Shown here: in pieces, positions 9,309 to 35,194 of the stretch
Layout of the letters: each line of letters opens with the position of its first letter
Position numbering within the stretch: position 1 is the stretch's first letter
From: a virus
Strand: one strand, 5' to 3'
IMG/VR virus record: IMGVR_UViG_3300036841_000171
Coordinates: 1-35,531 of that record
Length of the DNA: 35,531 nucleotides
The notes under the pieces: generated by a model
Databases searched by the model: none
What the model was told of the DNA's origin: nothing
Seen by the model: the letters and a program-made list of their open reading frames with translations, nothing else
Translations under genes and position numbers: made by a program

Positions 9309-10568
9309 ATGTCAGCTATTGCTGGTCTGCGAGGAACTGGCGACTTCGGCACAGATGAAAGGCCGAAGAACTTTAGAGAGATGATTCTCTTCATGAACCC
9401 GAATGGCAGCGCGCCGATCTTCGCGCTGACCTCGAAGGCGAAGAAGAAGAGCGTCGACGATCCGGAGTATGCGTGGTGGAACGAGACGAACGTCTTGATC
9501 CGCTTGAAGGTGAACGGGGCATTGACCTCGGCCGCTACGACGGTGGTGGTGAACTCCGCTGACCCGAGCGCGAGCACCTTGAATATCAACTATGGGACGG
9601 CGAGCCACCTGAAGAATGGTGACTTGCTGATGGTGGAGCCCTCTTCCGATAACGCGACCTTCAACCCAGAAGTTATAGAGGTGATCGAATCGCTTTCGGA
9701 TACCGCCTTCACTGTGAGACGGGGAGCTCAAGGCACGACGCCCGCGACCATCGCGGACCAAGCTTTCCTCCTTCTGATTGGTTCGAACTACGCGGAAGGT
9801 GGGACGGCTCCGAAGGCGGTCACGAGGAACCCGGTGAAGTTCAACAACTACACCCAGATCTTTAAGAACTCCTATGAGCTCACCGGGACGGTCAATCAGA
9901 CCAGGTTCCGTACCGGTGACCCGTGGAGCAATGATAAGAAAAGGAAGATGTTCGACCACTCGAGGGATATCGAGATGGCGATCATTTTCGGACAGAAGAA
10001 CGAGAATACGACCTCGAGCGAGAACGGGAAGCCCATCCGGACGTTTGGTGGGTTGCGGCAGCAAATCCCGAGCACGAGGCAGTTTGTATTCTCGGGCCCG
10101 GTGAAGCTAGGGACGGACGCATCGAACTCCTTCCTGGATAACGTTTATAAGGTGTTCGACTACGACTCCCCCGCGGGGGATACGAGGATCTGCTTTGCTG
10201 GTAATGCGGCTATCAACTCGCTTGCGAAGGTGGCAGCAGCGACTACGAACGTTCGGCTCAATTCTGATTCTGTGATTAAGCAGTACGGGATGGAGTTCCG
10301 GGAGTTCATCATGCCACAAGGCCGGCTGCTGATCAAGTCCCACCCTCTGCTGAACATCCATGGAGGTATCTACGCAAAATCCATGTTGATCTTGGACTTC
10401 GCGTCCATTAACTACGTCTGTCTCAAAGGTCGAGATACGAAGACCTTTGATGATGTGCAGAACAAGGACGAAGATGTTCGGCGTGGGTATATCATGACCG
10501 AATGTTCGGTGGCCTTGGACCGCGGCGGCCTGACCTGCGCTTACCTTGGAAACGTGACTGATACGTGA
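9309..10568 (+). CDS. Major capsid protein, SU10/DUF5309-like
   Basis: A 419-residue protein that builds the head shell. Its architecture resembles the SU10-type HK97-fold capsid group: an N-terminal arm (FREMILFMNPNGSAPIFALTSKAKKK), then an inserted beta-rich domain (about 65-160, VNGALTSAATTVVVNSADP...TFTVRRGAQGTT), then the continuation VKFNNYTQIFKNSYELTGT. The spine-helix region has DIEMAIIFGQK and the C-terminus has a strand-rich domain with RLLIKSHPLL. The start follows AGGTGTAAGAG. Position after the scaffold and strong coding quality support the call. Confidence 0.85.
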   Translation: MSAIAGLRGTGDFGTDERPKNFREMILFMNPNGSAPIFALTSKAKKKSVDDPEYAWWNETNVLIRLKVNGALTSAATTVVVNSADPSASTLNINYGTASHLKNGDLLMVEPSSDNATFNPEVIEVIESLSDTAFTVRRGAQGTTPATIADQAFLLLIGSNYAEGGTAPKAVTRNPVKFNNYTQIFKNSYELTGTVNQTRFRTGDPWSNDKKRKMFDHSRDIEMAIIFGQKNENTTSSENGKPIRTFGGLRQQIPSTRQFVFSGPVKLGTDASNSFLDNVYKVFDYDSPAGDTRICFAGNAAINSLAKVAAATTNVRLNSDSVIKQYGMEFREFIMPQGRLLIKSHPLLNIHGGIYAKSMLILDFASINYVCLKGRDTKTFDDVQNKDEDVRRGYIMTECSVALDRGGLTCAYLGNVTDT

Positions 10569-21522: not shown

Positions 21523-24500
21523 ATGGGTGATTATGAGGACTTCCTGAATGGGCTTGGAGCTCCTGCTGAAGGGGCTCCTCCCGCTCCTACTGTACCCAAT
21601 CCGGATTTGGATGCCACAGGTTCTTATGAGAAGTTCCTGCAAGGGTTGGGAGGTAATCAACAAACCCCGGTCCCGTATGAGCAGTTCGTGCAGAATGTGG
21701 GGTTGGAGGATGAAGGTGTAGTTGGGAAGATGACCCGGCTCTTCACTTCCGGGGTGGCGAGGAATTATGGACAGTTTAAGGCGATAATTCCGACCTTGCA
21801 ATCCATGTATAATGAGAGCCAGGGGGATCAAGTTGGGGCAGTGGAGAAGGCGAAGGAGGCGCAAAACATCTTACAGGGTTATGGGGATTCGCAGTATGAG
21901 CTGTTTAAGAATGTGCATTCCCCGGAGGATTTTGGGTACTGGTTGATTGAGAAGCTAGGTGAACAGGGGATCACTACTTTAGCTACGATGGCGACGGCTG
22001 GAGGCGGGGCGCTCACTACCAAGCTCGCGATGTCTCAGCTCCTAGAACGGGGGCTCATCTCGAAGGGAACAGCTGAATCAGCGATGCTCGCGGGAGCAGC
22101 GGTCCCGACGTATGCTTTGAGCTCCGCGATGGAGGGGGCGAATACGAGTCAGGAACAATTCGAGGTGACAGGGAGCCCACAGGCCGGCTTGTCTGCAACG
22201 GCTGGTCTGACTAAAGGCTTACTCGAGCTGTGGGCTCCCATGTCCATTGCCCGGCACATGATCTCACCTTCTACGGTGGTGGGGACCAGTGCATTGGGAG
22301 CTCTAGGTAAGACTGCACTTAAAGAGGGGTCAACTGAATATGCGCAAGAGCTCATTGATATTGCGGCGCGGAAGTACTCCGATCCGAATTACAGTTTCTT
22401 TGGGACTGGAGCCACGCCTTGGTACCAAGGTGAAGGGTTCCTACGGGCGGCTGAAAGTGGAGCTACTGGATTCGCTGTTGGGGCTGTGTACGGAGCGCCT
22501 TTTGCTCGAGCTGAAGCAGCAGCGGCAACACGCGAAGCTTTGGGGGATCAACCAATAGGAGATAGGAGGACTTTCACTGCCGGGCAGATCCCGCCGGAGT
22601 TCCAACCCGGGGAGCCACCGCCTAAGGGGGAGATCAGTCCGGAACTCGAGAAGCTGTATGATCAGCACACGAAGCTGCTGCAGGATATTTGGAATAATGA
22701 TGAGGTGAAGAACCCGGCGAGGAATAAGCAGCTTAATCAACAGCTAGATCAGGTTGAGCAGAAGATCCGAGAGGTTGAGAATTTCCAAAACCGAGCTACT
22801 CATGGTGGGTCGGGAGCGATTAATGAGCTGTCGGTCCCGGAGGGTCCGATTACGAGCTTGAGGAATATGGTGATGGCTCCGCAGGGTTTTGATGCGGGGA
22901 ATATGGAGATCTTGAATGCGTTTCCGAAATCACCTCGAGATGATGTCACGGGGCTTGGACCTCTGACTGCTAGTGTGAGGAATGATGAGATGGCGAGGGA
23001 AGCCATCTTGAATCATATTGATAGGACGACTCTGAGGTATATTGAGCAGAAGCCGGATGGAAGCCTCGGGAATCGGATCCTCACGGATACGGAGATCGAG
23101 CTCCATGATTCGCTTTATAGAACCCAGGATGTGAAGCCGAGCTGGGTGCGGGTCGACCCGGCCTCGCTCCAGGCGGTTGGGATTTCAGCCCACGTAACCG
23201 ATCTTGCTGATCCGAAGAGTGGGAAGGTGTGGTTCGCGGATATGCCGGGGAGGCCGCTGAGCGCGCAGCAGAAGCAGCAGATGATGATGCAGTATGAGGA
23301 AACTTACCTCATGGCGAATGCCACGGAGCATCAGATTCTGGTGGATTCCGCAACGAGAGCTGCGTTTGAGAAGTCTATAGGTGATAAGTATGGACCCCTC
23401 CTCACGATGGGATTAAGGGTGGTGCCGAGTAGGGGAGCTGGATTCTACTATACCGCAGGGGTCCGGACTGTTGGGCCTGCGATGGATCCAGGGAGGTTAT
23501 CAAAGCGCAGCCAGGAGAATGCGTGGTATCAGCCGAGTACTGGGCTTCTGACACCTTTCCGGGGGGATGAAAGGCAGATCCCGGCCGGGGGCTCTGGGAT
23601 CCTGGTGAGTATTGATTGGAATAAGGCGAAGCCGGGAGATTTCACCCGGATGTCGAATGGAGATCTCCTCATGAAGAGGACAGATCTCTCAAAGCTTACT
23701 CCTGGGATCCGGAATGTTTATGATCGGAAGCAGGAGATGATTGATCGGCAATCGCGGCCCGCGCTCGAAGGGCAGTCTGCGATTCAGGTGATGCCGGACA
23801 TCAAGTTAGAGAACTCGGTGCTTGTGGAAAGGATGGTGAAGGTGATTGAGAAGGCCCTGCCGAAGATTAGGCAGGTGCTTAAATCGATCGGGTATACCGA
23901 GCCCGTTCCGATTATCTTAACGGATAATGGGGCGCAGTTTGGGATCCATGGGACCGGGGCAGCTCTGACCGAACGCGGGGCAGTGGTGTTGGTGCCGGAC
24001 AACTTGGCAGAACAGAGAGCTCTTCATGGTGTCCGGGATGATCTGCTTCTGAATAAGGACTTTGATCTGCACCTCCTGAATTTGCTGGGACATGAGATTG
24101 GGCACCTCGTCACTTTGAGGTACTTTATGCAGCTGCCCTCCGCAATCCAGGATGGGCTTACTTATGCGTGGCAGAAGGCGAATCTCGCGGGGAGGATGAG
24201 GAGCTATTCGAAGACAAACTTCACCTCGTATGGGAATCCCCATCCGTTGAATAGGCAGTATTGGGCCACCTTCCCTGAATGGATGGCAGAGCAATTCAGG
24301 AGGTGGATGACCTCCGACGCGCAGGCTCTTACGCATATAGAGGTGGCTCAAGCGGGGGTGGCAAGGAAGCTGGAAGCGTGGGTCCGCACCTTTAATGGGG
24401 GGAACATATCCCAGGCGGCGATTACGAACCTTCTCTACCCAGACCACTTCTTCTCCGCCTTTATGGAGTATATGCGGGAGTATGGGAAGGCGAGGAAAGC

Positions 24501-27500
24501 GAATTCCCAGCTCACCTTACAGCAGGCGCTGCTGAAGCCTCCTGGGGATTTGAGGCATACACCTGCTGCAATGAGTGTTGCGAATATCGTGGCGAATCAG
24601 CTGGAGAACTATGCCCGGATGATCCCGCCGGGCGTTGGGCTTGTGCTCCAGCCCGGGGCCCTGGATCCAAACGTGATTAAAGAGTACACGGGGGTTGAGT
24701 TCAACCCGAGCGCGGCGACTGCGAGGTGGGTGTATTATCCCGCGAAGATGATGCAGTTTATTGAGATCGCGTTAGGGACCTTGAATACCGCGAACGCGGA
24801 AGAGGAGTCCCGGCTTTTCATCCCGCATGAGTTGATGCATGCGTATGAGGCTTTAGGTATTATTCCGGATAATGCGATTGCGATCTTGATGAAGGATATC
24901 AAGGGGAAAGAAGATCAGATCTTCCCGCCGGATATGGCAGCTCAACTTCGGAATTCGGTGAGGCAGGAGCAGAAAGAGCTGAAGAAAGATGAGACCTGGT
25001 TCCAGGTCACCTATAAGGAGAGGTATGAGAAGGAACTGCGGGCTTATTATATTCAGGATTTCGCGGATACTGGGGTTGCGTATTCGGAGGAAGGCCGAGG
25101 GGTGATCAATTGGATCCTCCAGCTGATTGAGAGGATCAAGAATGCGGTGCAAGGTCTCGGGTTCCAGACGCGGGAGGATGTGATTCGGGCCTTCTATTCC
25201 GGGGAGATGCTTGAGAGGTTCAATAATGCAGATAAGCAAAGGGTGGTGAAGCAGAAGGCGCAGCTTCTGAACTCGATTGACCAGGCGAGAAGGAATGAGA
25301 TGGTTCCGAATCAGGTTATTGAAGTGGAACCTGGGATCTGGATGGCGAGTGAATATTATGGAGGTTCGAAGCAGGATTCCGATGCGATCTCATATATGTT
25401 TTTCGAGAAGAAAGGTGTTCAACCGACGGGGGCGAACCCGGCGTTGAAGCGCCTTGGCGCGTTGATTGGGCATGTGATCTTGGAGAAGGATTGGAGGAAG
25501 GGTTATCATGTCCAGGATCTAGCTTCAGACCGCCCCGGGTTTGCCGCCCGGATCGCAATTCACGTCTTGAGGGATCTCGGGTTGACCCAGGATGATCTTG
25601 TTCCACCTGCAGCCGCGACGCAGGAAGGGAAGGTGATCTATGCGTGGGCGGCCAGGAATACCAAGTGGAAGGGAGTCTTCGATTATTACGTGCTGGATAA
25701 GAGGAGCAATGAGTGGTTTAGCCCGAATCACATTCGGCAGATGGCTGGGTTCTGGAGCCAGGAGCTGGGGAAGAGCAAGGTGGGTCAAAGCGAGTACCCC
25801 CTCGCGACCATCTCGAAAGAGCTTCAGAGGTACTCGAAGCTTTATGATCAGGTAAGTAAGGAGGCGTGGAATGATCCGAGATTGGAGGAGATGTTCTCGC
25901 TGAAGAAGAACTTGATGGTGGATGGGGTTCAGGGATCAATGATCCGGGAAGGATCCCGGGCTCAAGAGGGGCAGCTCATGCAGAGCTTGGGGACCCCGAA
26001 TGAGGCTTCCACGCAGGATATGTGGACTGCGAGCCAGATGCAAGCGCAGTTCAACTCACAAGCTCAGAGGGCGCTTGAGCACGGGATGAGTTTTGATCAG
26101 GCCGCCCCGGAAACCCTTCTGAGCTATGGTAGCCGGAAGATGTGGGAGAAGCTGACAGGATATGGGCACGCGAGAGATATTGATAGGGTGGTGGGGAGCC
26201 GGACCACGAATGAGACCTTTCATGAGATGGATCGGATTGGGAAGTTCACGAAGGTATGGTGGACCCTGGATCAGCTCACCTGGAGGAATCTGCACATTGT
26301 TGGGTTGAAGATGTATAGAGAGCTGACGGAGAAGATGAAGCAGCTCGGTGCGTTTTGGCTCAATAAGGCGGATGAGACTGCCCGGTATTGGGAGAAGAAC
26401 GTCACGGATCCAAAGGAGAGAGATGCGGTAGCGCAAGCTTTGTTTATGTTGACAGAGATGAATTATCGGTTGCCGAATGAGGTGTTGAATAAGATCATCC
26501 GGCTCCCGAGTAATTGGGGGCAGTTCTTAGCTGGGAATCCCGTGGTCCCGGGAGGGGAACTGGATCGGCTGTTCAAGAGAGCGGGGGTGAAGACGGCGGA
26601 AGGGTTGAATGTGATTCGGATGGTTGCGAACGACTTCGCGGCCTTCCTCAATCAGGTTGAACAGGTACGGGATAAGTTGCTGGTGAAGAGGCATGGGGTG
26701 ACCTCGACTGCGTATGCGACCGCGAAGGCGGCGTTGACGAAGGAGATGAATGATCTGCGGGAGAAGCCGTACTTCCCGATGGTGAGGTTTGGGGAATTCA
26801 CCCTAGCTTTGAGGGACCCGAACAATAATAATAAGCTGGTTTATGCGAATGCGTATATGACGCAGAGCCAGAGAGATGCGGCCGCGCGGGAGGCTTTGAG
26901 GCAGTACCCAGGGACCGATCTTACGATAGGTAGGGTGGATCCTAGGATGAGTGAGCTGATGTCTCTTCCGGGGCCGCTCATCCGGTCTATTAAGGAGCTC
27001 TTATTGGATAAGATGGGGCTGAGTAAGGCGGATGAAGCGAAGATGGAAGCCTTGCTTGAGGAGTTCGAAGCTCATCATGCTCCGGATAGGAGCTTTAGAA
27101 GGAGGTGGATGCCGGCCAAGGGGATCCCAGGTTATAGTATGGATGCCCTGAGAACCTATGCTCACTACTTCATGTATGGGAGCAGGTATATTGCACGGCT
27201 CGCGTATATGGATGATCTCCAGAGCGCGATCAATCAGGTGAATAATACGGTCACATCCCCAGGTGTTAAAGATACTGCGAAGCGGCAGGCGATTGTGAAG
27301 TATATGAAGGATCACTTTGATTATATGATGGAGGGTGGGAGAGATGGGGGGAAGTTCCGAGCTTTCATGGCACTGTGGATGCTAGGCTTTAGTCCCGCCG
27401 CGGCGGCTATGAACCTCACTCAACCGTATATGGTGCTGTGGCCCAAGTTGGTAGCTGATTTCGGATTTGGGGACGGAAACGCCGTATTAAGCCAGGGGCT

Positions 27501-29010
27501 TAATGCATTGAAAGCGACGAACGGATATGCGGTAGGTGATCCCCGTTTCGAGATGGCTCGAGGGGAGATGGTGAGGCAGGGATACATTGAAGTGGGGCAG
27601 GCGGCGGAGCTGGGAGCTTTCGCTGAAGGGTACAATTTGATGAAGCTCTTCTCCGGGACCAAGGCGCAGAAGGCCTGGCGTGGGCTCCAGTGGGGCGGGA
27701 TGAAGATGTTCTCCGCGATAGAGCACTTCAACCGGGAGCTCACGTTCAAGGTGGCGTATGATCTGGGGTTGAAGTACGCGGCCACGAATAATAAGGCGAT
27801 GCAGCTCATTGACCTGACGAGCCCGCAGGAGGCGGCGGATCTCCGCGCGAGGTTGGGGATGACGCAGCAGGAAGCTTTGGCTTTCCTCTACGCAAAGGAT
27901 GCAATCAAACGAACTCAATTCGAGTATGGGAAGGATCAAGATGCACCTTTCATGCGGAACCCGCTCGCGAAGAACTTCCTGATCTTCTTCAAGTACACCC
28001 ACTCAATGCTTTATGCCATCCGCTTCAATGGGGCGATGTTCCAGATGCTTGCCCTGATGGCCTTTATGTACGGGCTCCAGGGCCTACCGGGGAGTGATGA
28101 GGCAAATGAGTTACTCCGGCTGCTCATGCGGAAGCTATTCGGCGCGGATTTCGACCTCCAGGGTAAGGCCCGGGAGTTCGCAAGAGCTGTCACGCGTGGT
28201 ACGATCTTCGATGAAGTGGGTCCAGACCTTCTCATGCATGGAATATCCAGATATGGCTTTGGTCTTGGCCTTCTGCCCGAAGGGTGGGGAGCTCCACGAT
28301 TTGACGCCTCAGCTAATGGATCAATGGGGCGGATCGTACCTGGTCTTGCAGAGATGCTACATGGGATCAATACGGATCAGAAGTGGAATGATATGGTGGC
28401 GCAATCAGCTCAGCGGGCTGCGGGCGCGGGTTATGGGCAGGTTATGTCCATGATGCAGTTTATGATGGCGCCCAACCAGGTGGATTCGCATAAGTGGGAG
28501 CAGTTGCTCCCGCGGTTTATGAAAGGATGGGCAGCTGCGTATCGGTATGGGGTGGATCCGCAGGCGGAGACCACAGCAGCTGGAGCTCAGATTGCGAAGT
28601 TCAACCCGACAGACCCGGATGATCTTACTACGATCGCAGCTCAAGCTCTTGGGTTCAGACCGACGAAGGTGAATGAGAAATGGGAGATGATTAGGGCCGC
28701 CCGGGAAGTCACCCAAACGTACACAGCCCGGAAGGCGGATCTATATATCCAGTTCCAAACCGCGATGGTGAAGAAGGACCCGGAAGCGCTGCAGGATGTG
28801 GCGAATGCGATTAAGGCGTTTAATGATCAAGTCGCGAAGGAGTATCCGACCCTGGTGATCTCGACTCAAAGCTTGAGGAACTCCATCCATCAACGCCTCA
28901 CGAGTAAGGGGCTGATGGAGGAGTTCCTCGCGACCTCGAAGAAAGATATCCTGGTCACGCAGAAGATAATGGATCTCTACCCAGGTGTGCGAGTTGAGAA
29001 AGTGAAATGA
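21523..29010 (+). CDS. Giant polyvalent ejection protein with two zincin motifs
   Basis: A 2495-residue protein, about a fifth of the window. The N-terminus holds three short repeats of the type DYEDFLNGLG, SYEKFLQGLG and PYEQFVQNVG, probably a virion sorting tag. Residues about 145-350 contain Gly/Ala-rich hydrophobic helices. HEIGH at 857-861, followed by EWMAEQ at 919-924, is a metalloprotease-type zincin site. A second, HELMH at 1102-1106, is followed by a Glu-rich EKELRAYY segment near 1169. The C-terminal third resembles the PLxRFG/large-polyvalent-protein region (NPLAKNFLIFFKY near 2147), with hydrophobic helices. Such proteins enter the host with the DNA. I saw no clear RNA polymerase motif. 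It abuts the preceding stop codon. Confidence 0.8.
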   Translation: MGDYEDFLNGLGAPAEGAPPAPTVPNPDLDATGSYEKFLQGLGGNQQTPVPYEQFVQNVGLEDEGVVGKMTRLFTSGVARNYGQFKAIIPTLQSMYNESQGDQVGAVEKAKEAQNILQGYGDSQYELFKNVHSPEDFGYWLIEKLGEQGITTLATMATAGGGALTTKLAMSQLLERGLISKGTAESAMLAGAAVPTYALSSAMEGANTSQEQFEVTGSPQAGLSATAGLTKGLLELWAPMSIARHMISPSTVVGTSALGALGKTALKEGSTEYAQELIDIAARKYSDPNYSFFGTGATPWYQGEGFLRAAESGATGFAVGAVYGAPFARAEAAAATREALGDQPIGDRRTFTAGQIPPEFQPGEPPPKGEISPELEKLYDQHTKLLQDIWNNDEVKNPARNKQLNQQLDQVEQKIREVENFQNRATHGGSGAINELSVPEGPITSLRNMVMAPQGFDAGNMEILNAFPKSPRDDVTGLGPLTASVRNDEMAREAILNHIDRTTLRYIEQKPDGSLGNRILTDTEIELHDSLYRTQDVKPSWVRVDPASLQAVGISAHVTDLADPKSGKVWFADMPGRPLSAQQKQQMMMQYEETYLMANATEHQILVDSATRAAFEKSIGDKYGPLLTMGLRVVPSRGAGFYYTAGVRTVGPAMDPGRLSKRSQENAWYQPSTGLLTPFRGDERQIPAGGSGILVSIDWNKAKPGDFTRMSNGDLLMKRTDLSKLTPGIRNVYDRKQEMIDRQSRPALEGQSAIQVMPDIKLENSVLVERMVKVIEKALPKIRQVLKSIGYTEPVPIILTDNGAQFGIHGTGAALTERGAVVLVPDNLAEQRALHGVRDDLLLNKDFDLHLLNLLGHEIGHLVTLRYFMQLPSAIQDGLTYAWQKANLAGRMRSYSKTNFTSYGNPHPLNRQYWATFPEWMAEQFRRWMTSDAQALTHIEVAQAGVARKLEAWVRTFNGGNISQAAITNLLYPDHFFSAFMEYMREYGKARKANSQLTLQQALLKPPGDLRHTPAAMSVANIVANQLENYARMIPPGVGLVLQPGALDPNVIKEYTGVEFNPSAATARWVYYPAKMMQFIEIALGTLNTANAEEESRLFIPHELMHAYEALGIIPDNAIAILMKDIKGKEDQIFPPDMAAQLRNSVRQEQKELKKDETWFQVTYKERYEKELRAYYIQDFADTGVAYSEEGRGVINWILQLIERIKNAVQGLGFQTREDVIRAFYSGEMLERFNNADKQRVVKQKAQLLNSIDQARRNEMVPNQVIEVEPGIWMASEYYGGSKQDSDAISYMFFEKKGVQPTGANPALKRLGALIGHVILEKDWRKGYHVQDLASDRPGFAARIAIHVLRDLGLTQDDLVPPAAATQEGKVIYAWAARNTKWKGVFDYYVLDKRSNEWFSPNHIRQMAGFWSQELGKSKVGQSEYPLATISKELQRYSKLYDQVSKEAWNDPRLEEMFSLKKNLMVDGVQGSMIREGSRAQEGQLMQSLGTPNEASTQDMWTASQMQAQFNSQAQRALEHGMSFDQAAPETLLSYGSRKMWEKLTGYGHARDIDRVVGSRTTNETFHEMDRIGKFTKVWWTLDQLTWRNLHIVGLKMYRELTEKMKQLGAFWLNKADETARYWEKNVTDPKERDAVAQALFMLTEMNYRLPNEVLNKIIRLPSNWGQFLAGNPVVPGGELDRLFKRAGVKTAEGLNVIRMVANDFAAFLNQVEQVRDKLLVKRHGVTSTAYATAKAALTKEMNDLREKPYFPMVRFGEFTLALRDPNNNNKLVYANAYMTQSQRDAAAREALRQYPGTDLTIGRVDPRMSELMSLPGPLIRSIKELLLDKMGLSKADEAKMEALLEEFEAHHAPDRSFRRRWMPAKGIPGYSMDALRTYAHYFMYGSRYIARLAYMDDLQSAINQVNNTVTSPGVKDTAKRQAIVKYMKDHFDYMMEGGRDGGKFRAFMALWMLGFSPAAAAMNLTQPYMVLWPKLVADFGFGDGNAVLSQGLNALKATNGYAVGDPRFEMARGEMVRQGYIEVGQAAELGAFAEGYNLMKLFSGTKAQKAWRGLQWGGMKMFSAIEHFNRELTFKVAYDLGLKYAATNNKAMQLIDLTSPQEAADLRARLGMTQQEALAFLYAKDAIKRTQFEYGKDQDAPFMRNPLAKNFLIFFKYTHSMLYAIRFNGAMFQMLALMAFMYGLQGLPGSDEANELLRLLMRKLFGADFDLQGKAREFARAVTRGTIFDEVGPDLLMHGISRYGFGLGLLPEGWGAPRFDASANGSMGRIVPGLAEMLHGINTDQKWNDMVAQSAQRAAGAGYGQVMSMMQFMMAPNQVDSHKWEQLLPRFMKGWAAAYRYGVDPQAETTAAGAQIAKFNPTDPDDLTTIAAQALGFRPTKVNEKWEMIRAAREVTQTYTARKADLYIQFQTAMVKKDPEALQDVANAIKAFNDQVAKEYPTLVISTQSLRNSIHQRLTSKGLMEEFLATSKKDILVTQKIMDLYPGVRVEKVK

Positions 29011-29260
29011 GTTCATCCTCAACGAGCTTCGCATACCCCGCGATGTCATGCCAGGAGTCTGGGTAGTTCGGGTCCCCATTCAGGATCCGAGCTATCTTGT
29101 GTTGGATCATATCGAGAGCTTCTTTTTGAGAAGCTGTAAGCTTATCCCAACCGGGAGAGCACCGCATCATAAGCTTGAACTCTTGTGAGATGTAGGCGTG
29201 GGTTTTAAAGCTTCCATACCTCTTACCTCTCTCTACCAAGGTTTGAGCTACATCATTCAT
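28955..29260 (-). CDS. DUF6378 family protein
   Basis: A 101-residue protein with the conserved DUF6378 pattern: ERGKRYGSF, then HAYISQEFK, and the long stretch EALDMIQHKIARILNGDPNY followed by DSWHDIAGYAKLVEDEL. This small family is widespread in phages, but its biochemical role is not known to me. The start overlaps the preceding stop as ATGA. Its 3' end runs 56 bases into the end of the giant gene on the other strand, so the two arms converge with overlapping coding sequence. Confidence 0.85.
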   Translation of the reverse strand: MNDVAQTLVERGKRYGSFKTHAYISQEFKLMMRCSPGWDKLTASQKEALDMIQHKIARILNGDPNYPDSWHDIAGYAKLVEDELISLSQLAHLGRDPLSSA

Positions 29261-29685
29261 TTGAGGGCCTCCAAGAGCTCACTCATGTCGATCACAATCT
29301 TATCCGCCAGCAGATACATCAAGTCTGGTTCCTCTCCATCTTCAGTATAGATAACAACCCTCTTCCCCGCGCCCGCCATCCATCCAGCTTCGAGGTGGGC
29401 GGAGCGGCCGCACGGGAGGAGGAGCACGCAGGTATCTGCCCACTTCATCCCGGAGAGATCTTGGTAGAAGCCGTGCCGGGCGATCGGGTTGGTATAGAGC
29501 TCAAAGCGGAAGGCCTTGGCGGTCCAATCCCTCCAATCCGGGTCGATTTGGGACCACGCGAATCCACCTTGGCCATCCGGTGGATTACGGAAGTCATAGA
29601 CCATGTGCCCAGCAGTTCGAAGCCAGGAAACAATATGAGGTTGGCGCTCGTTCCGCCAACTCGATGCGAGGTAGATCTTTGCCAT
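29257..29685 (-). CDS. Nucleoside 2-deoxyribosyltransferase-like protein
   Basis: A 142-residue Rossmann-like protein. KIYLASSWRN at the start and CGRSAHLEAGWMAGAGKRVVIY later (about 92-113) are the phosphate-loop and Ser-x-x-x-Glu type sites of the nucleoside deoxyribosyltransferase/DUF4406 superfamily; GHMVYDFR is the second strand. It may handle deoxynucleosides or modified nucleotides for phage DNA synthesis. Substrate is unknown. It overlaps the upstream gene by TAATG and the downstream DUF6378 gene by ATGA. Confidence 0.7.
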   Translation of the reverse strand: MAKIYLASSWRNERQPHIVSWLRTAGHMVYDFRNPPDGQGGFAWSQIDPDWRDWTAKAFRFELYTNPIARHGFYQDLSGMKWADTCVLLLPCGRSAHLEAGWMAGAGKRVVIYTEDGEEPDLMYLLADKIVIDMSELLEALK

Positions 29686-32767: not shown

Positions 32768-33036
32768 TAACCATCTCCCAACTCCCTCGTCATCACCCGG
32801 AGGTGCTTCATGCAGAAGTGCTTCCCATTGAAGAAATGCCTCGCCTTGTGTTTGCACTGCTCGGGGTGCTCCTGGAGTCCCGGGCAGCCAGTATACCTTG
32901 CAAGGCCTTCACACTGAGGTAGGGTTCTCTTCTCCTTGTAGAGCCGCCTTGGCTTGAAAAGCTTCAACTGCCCGGCGGAGCTGTCCAGCGGTTCTCCTAC
33001 CTTCATTCGCAATTGCGGTGAGCGAAATAGGGTCAT
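32767..33036 (-). CDS. Small Cys/His-rich, probable zinc-binding protein
   Basis: An 89-residue protein starting at ATG 33036, inside the polymerase stop (ATGA), with GGAGGAG upstream. The C-terminal half has Cys42, Cys51, Cys61, His63, His67, Cys75 and His78 (QCEGLARYTGCPG, EQCKHKARHFF, HFCMKH), enough for one or two zinc sites. The N-terminus is basic and unstructured. It stops at the primase/helicase start, so it may be a replication accessory or a DNA-binding zinc finger. Confidence 0.65.
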   Translation of the reverse strand: MTLFRSPQLRMKVGEPLDSSAGQLKLFKPRRLYKEKRTLPQCEGLARYTGCPGLQEHPEQCKHKARHFFNGKHFCMKHLRVMTRELGDG

Positions 33037-33788
33037 TGGAGCTCCTCCCACTTGTACTTCTTAACATCTCCCCAACTTTCGGCGGAGGCGGCGAGTCCCC
33101 ATGGTATAGTAAGGGGATCTGGATACGGGATTGGGACTGTAAGCACATCGCGGACCTCGCGGAAAGATGCCGCAGTAAAGCGGTGAGTGGGGACTTGGAA
33201 GATGATGGAATCGTGAACTTGCAGGAGAATTTCTGCCCAGGGGAGCTTAGCGCGAAGATTAAGAGCAGCGCGGCCTGTGACTCCGGCCACTGTCGATTGA
33301 GGTATCCATGCAAGCCCCTTCGGGAGAAGATTGTCTGCCCGATCGAAGTAGATGATCCGGTTTCCAAACTTATTCGACACCATCCGGCGGAGTTGCAGAT
33401 CACGTTCAACTCGGCGGTGCCATTCCTTGATTCCAGGGTGGAGCTGGAACCACCTTTGTTGGAAGGCTTCGGCTTCTGCGATACGCCAGCCGAAGGTGAT
33501 AGCGAGAGTCCGGGCGGAAGCTCCATAGTTGGTTCCATGGACACCGCTTTTAAGCTCGTCGCGGACAGTTGGTTTAATTTTGCCCGGCGCTTTCGGATTG
33601 TATGACTTCCCATACATTGCCTCCCCGTTATGGTTGTGGACATCGAGCCCGTTGCGAAAGGCAGATTTCAGGTCCGCATCCTCGGCCTCCCAGGCAACGA
33701 CCTGCGCGTCTGCACCGGAAAGATCGACGTCGCAAATGATCCTCCCTTTGTCGGGCATGAAGAGTTTCCGGATATTTGGTAGCTTCAT
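33033..33788 (-). CDS. Family-A DNA polymerase, palm/fingers part only
   Basis: A 251-residue protein that aligns only with the C-terminal polymerase domain of DNA polymerase I. Motif A is DVDLSGADAQ (catalytic Asp22), motif B/O-helix is RDELKSGVHGTNYG (Arg76, Lys80, Tyr88), and motif C is QVHDSIIF (Asp193, where the usual HDE is HDS). The chain begins 21 residues before motif A, so the 3'-5' exonuclease and thumb are absent from this gene; typical relatives exceed 550 residues. ATG 33788 overlaps the preceding stop (ATGA). Either the rest is encoded beyond the right edge and pairs with this part, or it is a remnant. An HNH endonuclease lies about 1.1 kb upstream. Confidence 0.85.
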   Translation of the reverse strand: MKLPNIRKLFMPDKGRIICDVDLSGADAQVVAWEAEDADLKSAFRNGLDVHNHNGEAMYGKSYNPKAPGKIKPTVRDELKSGVHGTNYGASARTLAITFGWRIAEAEAFQQRWFQLHPGIKEWHRRVERDLQLRRMVSNKFGNRIIYFDRADNLLPKGLAWIPQSTVAGVTGRAALNLRAKLPWAEILLQVHDSIIFQVPTHRFTAASFREVRDVLTVPIPYPDPLTIPWGLAASAESWGDVKKYKWEELQ

Positions 33789-34124: not shown

Positions 34125-34283
34125 TTAACCTTTCACTCTCTTGAGATTCGGGTTCTTAGCTTTCGCTCCCGCGCTTGCGCGGCGGGTGGAGGCTGCGAGC
34201 TCCGCGCTGGCGCGCTCCTTCGAGATGCCTTGCTTCTTCGCCATACTTGCAGCGACGTTCTTGAATCCAGGGTGCTTAGCCAT
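34125..34283 (-). CDS. Small conserved basic phage protein (MAKHPGF type)
   Basis: A 52-residue protein starting MAKHPGFKNVAASMAKKQG and ending AKAKNPNLKRVKG. Very similar short proteins are common in phage genomes, with a basic helix-turn-helix-like region (GISKERASAELAAST). It may bind DNA or help assembly. The frame was chosen because the competing 69-residue frame at 34133-34342 lacks this recognisable pattern and overlaps the upstream gene. GGAGAATG precedes the start. Confidence 0.75.
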   Translation of the reverse strand: MAKHPGFKNVAASMAKKQGISKERASAELAASTRRASAGAKAKNPNLKRVKG

Positions 34284-34287
34284 CTAT

Positions 34288-34521
34288 TCATTCTCCACGT
34301 GGTGAGCCATCGGGGTTGCGGGTGATTGCTACGTTGACCCACATTGCCAAACTTCGTAGCTTTCTGAGAATATAGACTTTATCTGGTCCATCAGGAATGA
34401 TGACTTCAAGATTCAAGGCGTATTTTGCTGCCGCTTCCCTACCTTGGTTCATCTTCATCATTTGGCTAGGTGAAGGTTTTAGATAGAGAAAGGTGTTTGG
34501 ATGGAGGTATTGATGACTCAT
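34288..34521 (-). CDS. Candidate Acb2/Tad1 hairpin-domain cyclic-nucleotide sponge
   Basis: A 77-residue protein. Two helices make a hairpin: REAAAKYALNLEVIIPDGPD (about 28-47) and KVYILRKLRSLAMWVNVAITRNP (about 48-70). The pattern F.Y.KP, then IPDG..K...L.KL...MW.N.AI.RN, is what I know from short phage proteins of the Acb2/Tad1 hairpin group. Members of that group bind CBASS or Thoeris signalling nucleotides and block anti-phage defence. Assignment is by pattern, and key binding residues cannot be confirmed here. It overlaps the upstream gene by ATGA. Confidence 0.6.
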   Translation of the reverse strand: MSHQYLHPNTFLYLKPSPSQMMKMNQGREAAAKYALNLEVIIPDGPDKVYILRKLRSLAMWVNVAITRNPDGSPRGE

Positions 34522-34682
34522 CTTCCACTCCTGCGCTTCTCAGCTAATGCTACTGCCACCGCTTGCTTGTCCGCCTTCTTCTTCCCGAATTTCGCCTCCG
34601 TTTTGCGATAGGTGTTCCCCGTGTGGAACTCGCGAATGTTCTGGCTTACGGTTGACTTGCTTGTACCTTTCTTCAAAGGCAT
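34518..34682 (-). CDS. Small basic conserved phage protein (MPLKKG type)
   Basis: A 54-residue protein starting MPLKKGTSKSTVSQNIREF and ending KQAVAVALAEKRRSGR. This start and end are typical of a widespread small phage protein that I cannot name functionally; a basic DNA-binding role is plausible. The start is at 34682, inside the 3' part of the zinc-ribbon gene in another frame (143 bases of overlap). Its stop overlaps the next start as ATGA. Confidence 0.7.
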   Translation of the reverse strand: MPLKKGTSKSTVSQNIREFHTGNTYRKTEAKFGKKKADKQAVAVALAEKRRSGR

Positions 34683-34866
34683 CTTCCATTCTCCTCCTAA
34701 ACCGGCGAAGACGCCGGAGCTCTTCAACGATATTCTGTTCAACTTCCCAAGTATCCCAGAGCTTCTTACATTGTTTACACCTCCGTACCCTTTGGACAGT
34801 ATCTGTGAGCTTCCTCGAATCAAGGATCTCACTTCCCTTTGTGCAACCCCACGGGCAACTAAGCAT
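34540..34866 (-). CDS. NrdR-like zinc-ribbon protein
   Basis: A 108-residue protein starting at ATG 34866 (AAGGGAG upstream), just inside the end of the HNH gene. Residues 4-40 form a zinc ribbon similar to the N-terminus of NrdR: Cys4 and Cys8, then EILDSRKLTDTVQRVRRCKQC with Cys30 and Cys33, then WDTWE. NrdR represses ribonucleotide reductase genes, but its ATP-cone is missing here. The next part is a basic helix (EELRRLRRFRRRMEDAFEERYK); the last 35 residues are low-complexity and share DNA with the next gene. Confidence 0.65.
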   Translation of the reverse strand: MLSCPWGCTKGSEILDSRKLTDTVQRVRRCKQCKKLWDTWEVEQNIVEELRRLRRFRRRMEDAFEERYKQVNRKPEHSRVPHGEHLSQNGGEIREEEGGQASGGSSIS

Positions 34867-35194
34867 AGCTTTTTCTCCCTTGGCCAGTAAATTTACGTCT
34901 CCAACGCCCGCGGGAAACAGTATCTCGATTATTATCGGTAGCTGTTCCAAGTTGGAGATGGGAGAGCTCGAGGCATTCTTTGTTATCACAGGTGTGTCGG
35001 ATTACAAGGTGTGATTCGATCTCCCCATGGATGATGGTCCAAAGAAGGCGAGCAGCTCGGCCAGTCCTTCCATCATACCAGAAGGCGGGATAGCCGTCGC
35101 GGTCTTTGCCTCCTGACCATTTCGTGCAACCGTTCTCCCCTGGGGAGATACGGAGGTAGAGACGACGAAGGGCTTCTTTCTTGTTGTACTTCAT
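34859..35194 (-). CDS. HNH homing-type endonuclease
   Basis: A 111-residue protein with an N-terminal NUMOD-like part (CTKWSGGKDRDGYPAFWYDGR) and an HNH nuclease core: RHTCDNKECLELSHLQLGT with His67, Cys69, Cys74 and His79, then DNNRD. Free-standing HNH endonucleases of this type spread by cutting related phages at their insertion sites. GAGG lies nine bases before ATG 35194. It is the first confidently identified gene of the leftward operon in the window, and the polymerase fragment lies downstream. Confidence 0.85.
   Translation of the reverse strand: MKYNKKEALRRLYLRISPGENGCTKWSGGKDRDGYPAFWYDGRTGRAARLLWTIIHGEIESHLVIRHTCDNKECLELSHLQLGTATDNNRDTVSRGRWRRKFTGQGRKSYA

What the first reader, a model, noticed from the sequence alone, without database searches (positions are those of the whole stretch)
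34288..34521. Candidate anti-CBASS/anti-Thoeris sponge
The 77-residue product has the two-helix pattern (IPDG..K...L.KL...MW.N.AI.RN) that I associate with Acb2/Tad1 hairpin proteins, which sequester cyclic oligonucleotide or gcADPR signals. It sits in a cluster of very small genes beside an HNH endonuclease, a typical place for anti-defence genes.
Basis: partly seen in the sequence, partly recalled or inferred. Interest (0 to 1): 0.6.

Follow-up and report, generated by a model that had tools for sequence, protein, structure and literature searches.

The report
Small Acb2-like phage nucleotide sponge
This soil-phage gene encodes a 77-residue protein of the Acb2/Tad1 hairpin family, so it probably soaks up the alarm nucleotides that bacteria use to trigger anti-phage suicide; it is a divergent member of a known family, and its binding has not been tested.

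Summary
In detail: a 77-codon ORF lies at 34521→34288 on the minus strand, with a ribosome-binding site and an ATGA overlap with the preceding gene. It has at least 205 homologous stretches in viral contigs and clear purifying selection (median dN/dS 0.15).

The family call is also right. The protein alone scores below the Pfam cut-off for Acb2/Tad1 hairpin (18.2 vs 27 bits). But all 28 aligned relatives match that model, and 12 of 14 relatives' records exceed its cut-off. It aligns with other compact hairpin proteins at 98.7% hhalign probability. AlphaFold2 gives a confident two-helix hairpin whose top viral structure matches are Acb2/Tad1 hairpin proteins.

The architecture is Acb2-like: a short N-terminal arm plus hairpin, without Tad1's β-domain. 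The tyrosine needed for cyclic-dinucleotide binding in T4 Acb2 is conserved (Y13), with a basic residue at the Lys23/Lys26 position (R28).

The best reading is a nucleotide sponge that blocks CBASS-type signalling. Ligand, hexamer and anti-defence effect are untested, and no biochemistry was found for this compact branch. It is a new member of a known kind; a lineage-specific arginine set and C-terminal tail may change ligand choice.

The parts
34288..34521 (-). Compact Acb2/Tad1-hairpin protein, 77 aa, predicted cyclic-nucleotide sponge (Acb2-like)
   Evidence: PF24729 18.2 bits, E 0.0029 (cut-off 27); phrog_1454 E 1.3e-7; all 28 relatives match PF24729; hhalign 98.7% with compact hairpin proteins; AF2 hairpin pLDDT 91
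34483..34485 (-). codon of Y13, aligned with T4 Acb2 Y8 / PaMx33 Y11
   Evidence: alignment; Tyr in 65 of 68 sequences; T4 Y8A disrupts cyclic-dinucleotide binding (PMC12657218, PMC12657230)
34438..34440 (-). codon of R28, aligned with T4 K23 / PaMx33 K26
   Evidence: alignment; Arg in 67 of 68 sequences
34518..34682 (-). preceding 54-aa gene, DUF6496-like; its TGA overlaps the sponge's ATG (ATGA)
   Evidence: DUF6496 E 8.6e-5 for the longer frame, below cut-off; overlap read from sequence
34125..34283 (-). following 52-aa basic gene, starting 4 bases after the sponge's stop; same presumed operon
   Evidence: no family match
34859..35194 (-). HNH_3 endonuclease, 111 aa, upstream in the same direction
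   Evidence: PF13392 E 3.7e-9; phrog_1872 E 1.1e-23

Best explanation
The gene encodes a compact, stand-alone Acb2-type sponge. SHOWN here: it is a real, conserved phage gene; its protein belongs to the Acb2/Tad1 hairpin family; it is predicted to fold as a short N-terminal arm plus two antiparallel helices; and the tyrosine and basic residue at the cyclic-dinucleotide pocket positions of tested Acb2 proteins are kept (Y13; R28 in place of Lys). INFERRED: by analogy with Acb2, the hairpins pack into a hexamer. Head-to-head protomers form pockets in which Y13 and R28 hold a cyclic dinucleotide, with possibly a second kind of site for cyclic trinucleotides in the central channel. The protein is made from the replication-gene operon during infection. 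It titrates the signal made by the host's CBASS (or a related nucleotide-signalling defence) without cutting it, so the suicide effector is not switched on and the phage can replicate.
For: PF24729 hits for the protein and all 28 relatives, with 12 of 14 relatives' records over the cut-off and positive controls T4 Vs.4 at 71 bits and PaMx33 Acb2 at 66 bits. Direct tblastn match to Paenibacillus phage Heath's hairpin protein at E 1e-4, itself 86 bits to PF24729. hhalign with compact hairpin proteins 98.7%, E 1.7e-16. AF2 model pLDDT 91. All of the first 13 BFVD hits are Acb2/Tad1 hairpin proteins, TMq 0.56-0.75. T4 Acb2 (7uq2) is the top PDB hit of both aligners, though weak. Pocket tyrosine in 65 of 68 sequences and basic position in 67 of 68. 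T4 Y8A loses dinucleotide binding (PMC12657218). Cluster E mycobacteriophage proteins are already annotated as CBASS antagonists from sequence (PMC11953737). Varied gene neighbours fit accessory cargo.
Against: The window protein alone is under the Pfam cut-off. Direct profile comparison with the tested T4/PaMx33 clade is weak (hhalign 6.6%, E 0.0055), and that clade carries about 15-25 extra residues between the helices, so the link runs through Pfam and compact intermediates. PDB structural matches are not above the background for helical hairpins (Foldseek E 2.5, Z 6.4). No compact member with measured binding was found in the held papers. Hexamer formation was not testable. The host, and whether it has CBASS, is unknown.
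Confidence: 0.75

Rival explanations
1. Same hairpin fold, but the compact branch is an anti-Thoeris or broader sponge whose main ligand is gcADPR, as in Tad1, rather than a cyclic oligonucleotide.
For: The hairpin model covers Tad1 too: SBSphiJ7 Tad1 scores 35 bits. This family has a conserved tail after the second helix (DG[ST]PR), as Tad1 has a C-terminal extension after its hairpin, and the Tad1 C-terminal tail lines its gcADPR pocket (PMC12043709).
Against: Tad1's protomer also has an N-terminal beta-sheet domain and conserved loops that build the pocket (PMC12043709), and these 77 residues have none; only 17 residues precede helix 1.
Confidence: 0.12
2. The compact hairpin has been put to another use (binding a protein or a non-immune small molecule, for example in packaging or replication), not immune evasion.
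For: Relatives lie next to terminase and portal genes in some loci and next to DNA polymerase or SSB genes in others. No compact member has tested binding in the papers found.
Against: No neighbour is constant (at most 8 of 67 loci), unlike a packaging or replication subunit. The pocket Tyr and basic residue are nearly invariant.
Confidence: 0.12
3. The ORF is a chance reading frame and the motif is coincidence.
For: The protein alone is below the Pfam cut-off.
Against: At least 205 homologous stretches, dN/dS 0.15, RBS and coupled start, hhalign E 1.7e-16.
Confidence: 0.01

Closest known systems
Compact Acb2/Tad1 hairpin proteins of phrog_1454 (Paenibacillus phage Heath gp54, Lactococcus phages CHPC971/1706, Mycobacterium phage Phabba)
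   Same: Short N-terminal arm with F-x-Y-x-x-P, basic residue at the R28 position, no insertion between helices, P-x-x-x-[DE]-K turn and M-[WFT]-x-N-x-x-I second helix; direct tblastn E 1e-4 (Heath), hhalign 98.7%
   Different: About 34% identity; the window branch has invariant R53, R56 and R68 and a conserved DG[ST]PR tail
T4 Vs.4 (Acb2), PDB 7uq2
   Same: PF24729 hairpin; Tyr8 aligns with Y13, Lys23 with R28; MW in helix 2; top PDB hit of both structure aligners
   Different: About 14% identity over the structural alignment; T4 has a longer inter-helix segment; the T4 Thr68 position is Arg53 here, and the base-stacking Phe82 position is Thr67
PaMx33/PaP2 Acb2 (gp24/p26), PDB 8h2j
   Same: PF24729 hairpin; Tyr11 aligns with Y13, Lys26 with R28; found in a phage whose major capsid protein is a distant relative of this phage's (about 26% identity to PaMx41/PaMx33)
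   Different: Longer (93 aa) with an extra inter-helix stretch; different genome position (directly after the giant structural gene)
SBSphiJ7 Tad1
   Same: C-terminal hairpin of the same Pfam domain (35 bits), MW-x-N in the second helix
   Different: 142 aa with an N-terminal domain that the window protein lacks

Membership tests
Acb2/Tad1 hairpin domain family (PF24729) | Sequence profile match | tested here: met
   Own protein E 0.0029, 18.2 bits, under the 27-bit cut-off; all 28 relatives match, best 2e-11; 12 of 14 relatives' records over cut-off; compact members aligned at hhalign 98.7%
Acb2/Tad1 hairpin domain family (PF24729) | Two antiparallel long helices joined by a short turn | tested here: met
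   AF2 H18-41, H46-67, pLDDT 91; first 13 BFVD matches are all this family
Acb2 | Small stand-alone protein: short N-terminal segment plus hairpin, no beta-domain | tested here: met
   77 aa, helices only before the C-terminal tail. The short N-terminal helix seen in Acb2 crystals was not predicted in this model
Acb2 | Cyclic-dinucleotide pocket Tyr (Y8 T4 / Y11 PaMx33) | tested here: met
   Y13, Tyr in 65 and Phe in 2 of 68; importance of Y8 from PMC12657218
Acb2 | Basic residue at K23 (T4) / K26 (PaMx33); its role in the pocket is recalled, not tested | tested here: met
   R28 by alignment, Arg in 67 of 68; Arg instead of Lys
Acb2 | Direct profile similarity to the biochemically tested T4/PaMx33 clade | tested here: inconclusive
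   hhalign A1 vs A2 6.6%, E 0.0055; both clades match PF24729
Acb2 | Fold match to solved Acb2 above background | tested here: inconclusive
   7uq2 ranks first but Foldseek E 2.5, VIA Z 6.4 over 65 residues, rmsd 4.1, tied with unrelated hairpins
Acb2 | Homo-hexamer | not testable with these tools
   only monomers can be predicted here
Acb2 | Binds cyclic oligonucleotides and inhibits CBASS | not testable with these tools
   needs ITC/gel shift and plaque assays
Tad1 | N-terminal antiparallel beta-sheet domain before the hairpin | tested here: not met
   17 residues before helix 1, no strands there; SBSphiJ7 Tad1 is 142 aa

The most novel reading that the evidence does not exclude
A soil-phage branch of the sponge family has re-tooled the pocket: Arg53 at the position of T4 Thr68 (a T68M change is reported to lower binding in a T4-like phage, PMC12657230), invariant Arg56 and Arg68, and a conserved DG[ST]PR tail. 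It would sequester a signal other than those bound by T4/PaMx33 Acb2.
Probability: 0.25. Interest if true: 0.5.

Novelty: new member of a known kind. Interest (0 to 1): 0.3.

Why it matters
It puts a recognisable anti-CBASS-type sponge into a group of uncultivated phages where single-sequence annotation misses it because it scores under the Pfam cut-off. The wider alignment (67 distinct proteins) gives a ready set for testing how pocket changes set ligand choice. It also makes these phages candidates for triggering Panoptes-type defences, which sense sponges. It does not change the picture of how sponges work.

Tried and rejected
Plus-strand reading of the coordinates: stops throughout. phmmer/hmmsearch of the PDB with the protein, its family, or Heath's protein: only designed bundles or unrelated chains, or nothing, so sequence alone does not reach solved Acb2 structures. 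Poxvirus F15 Pfam hit (E 0.15): chance. Tad1 membership: rejected for lack of the beta-domain. Search of one genome per species (84,980 species): pattern hits but no confirmed relative, so no host could be named. Plasmids: no match. Conserved neighbour genes as a functional clue: none conserved. DNA-level relatives of the surrounding region in sequenced phages: only a short stretch in the DUF6378 gene.

Full report
OBSERVATION. The ORF is real and lies on the minus strand, 34521 to 34288, 77 codons. An AGGAG stands shortly before the ATG, and the start codon overlaps the stop of the preceding 54-codon gene in an ATGA; a 52-codon gene begins 4 bases after its stop. It lies in a minus-strand run with an HNH_3 endonuclease, DUF6496-like and other tiny genes, a weak TSCPD match, a family-A DNA polymerase fragment and a primase/DUF3987 protein. 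A pattern scan of viral contigs found 205 stretches that encode relatives. From the loci kept, 67 distinct proteins were extracted, mostly 70-82 aa. Seventeen independent close pairs give a median dN/dS of 0.15, so the protein is under purifying selection.

FAMILY. Pfam finds Acb2_Tad1_hairpin (PF24729) in the window protein at E 0.0029 but 18.2 bits, under the 27-bit cut-off. The weak score reflects divergence: all 28 aligned relatives hit the same model, best 2e-11; six of nine relatives scanned singly exceed the cut-off, and 12 of 14 records searched whole do. Positive controls score 71 bits (T4 Vs.4), 66 bits (PaMx33 Acb2) and 35 bits (SBSphiJ7 Tad1). Independent routes agree. tblastn links the protein directly to the Paenibacillus phage Heath protein at E 1e-4, which scores 86 bits to PF24729. 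hhalign between this family and three compact hairpin proteins gives 98.7% and E 1.7e-16. PHROG phrog_1454 matches at 1.3e-7 and also matches those same proteins.

STRUCTURE. AlphaFold2 with 28 sequences gives a helical hairpin, H18-41 and H46-67, mean pLDDT 91. In BFVD all of the first 13 hits are named Acb2/Tad1 hairpin proteins, with Foldseek probability 0.97-1.00 and TMq 0.56-0.75, although E-values are only 0.015-0.27, as one would expect for so small a fold. In the PDB, T4 Acb2 (7uq2) ranks first with Foldseek (E 2.5) and with VIA-align (Z 6.4), but unrelated hairpins reach Z 6.0, so this is agreement and not proof.

POCKET. In the joint alignment Y13 aligns with T4 Y8 and PaMx33 Y11, and R28 with K23 and K26. 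Among 68 sequences position 13 is Tyr in 65 and Phe in 2; position 28 is Arg in 67. Y8A disrupts cyclic-dinucleotide binding by T4 Acb2 (PMC12657218; PMC12657230); the pocket role of the Lys is recalled from the PaMx33 work, which was not available to read here. Arg53, Arg56 and Arg68 are invariant. R53 stands where T4 has Thr68, whose change to Met is reported to lower binding in a T4-like phage (PMC12657230), and T67 where T4 has the base-stacking Phe82. The Phe82 position is also Ala in PaMx33 and the Thr68 position is Asp in some T4-like Acb2 proteins, so neither difference argues against sponge function. They may change ligand choice.

ARCHITECTURE. Tad1 carries an N-terminal beta-sheet domain (PMC12043709), and SBSphiJ7 Tad1 is 142 aa. 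The window protein has 17 residues before helix 1 and no beta-domain, so by plan it is Acb2-like. Compared with T4 and PaMx33 it lacks about 15-25 residues between the helices, and direct hhalign with that clade is inconclusive. It belongs with the compact branch. Proteins of cluster E mycobacteriophages have been annotated as CBASS antagonists from sequence (PMC11953737) without, as far as the held papers show, binding tests; cluster-E-like phage proteins next to a ClpP-like protease gene are among the tblastn relatives of Heath's compact protein, but Xandras and BigBubba themselves were not looked up.

CONTEXT. The phage's major capsid protein is a distant relative (about 26%) of those of PaMx41 and PaMx33, in whose group Acb2 was found, but the gene sits elsewhere: near polA here, beside the giant structural gene there. 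Among 67 relatives no neighbour recurs in more than 8 loci; terminase and portal genes, a small DNA-binding-like protein, SSB, Sak4-like and DNA polymerase genes are seen. This fits mobile accessory cargo and argues against a fixed packaging or replication role. No relative was confirmed in 84,980 bacterial and archaeal species genomes, so host and host defences are unknown. The soil origin of the wider family is an inference from the contig collections and is not shown by a tool here.

VERDICT. Shown: gene, family, fold prediction, pocket residues. Inferred: hexamer, ligand, inhibition of CBASS or a related signalling defence. New member of a known kind.

Noticed in passing
33033-33788 (-): The family-A DNA polymerase ORF is only 251 aa and matches positions 140-350 of the 381-position Pfam model; the N-terminal part was not found directly upstream, where TSCPD-like and tiny genes lie. 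It may be a split or truncated polymerase, or the rest may lie beyond the contig end.
   Followed up: no
21523-29010 (+): A single 2495-aa ORF, probably a giant internal virion or ejection protein; PaMx41-like podoviruses also have a giant structural gene followed by a convergent early region.
   Followed up: no
9309-10568 (+): Major capsid protein 44% identical to that of Microcystis phage Mel-JY34 and 41% to Vibrio phage vB_VspS_VS-ABTNL-3, and about 26% to Pseudomonas PaMx41/PaMx33.
   Followed up: partly
29257-29685 (-) and 28955-29260 (-): Nucleoside deoxyribosyltransferase (phrog_12607, E 8e-59) followed by a DUF6378 protein (phrog_16943), a possible nucleotide-metabolism pair.
   Followed up: no
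34540-34863 (-): A frame with an NrdR-like zinc-ribbon similarity (E 2.6e-5, below cut-off) overlaps the DUF6496-like gene 34518-34682 by more than 140 bases in another frame; either a real overlap or one frame is not coding.
   Followed up: no
L050 24225-24335: In PaMx41 the acb2 frame carries an in-frame stop at codon 37 that is absent from close relatives such as PaMx33; already described in the literature (PMC10419184).
   Followed up: yes
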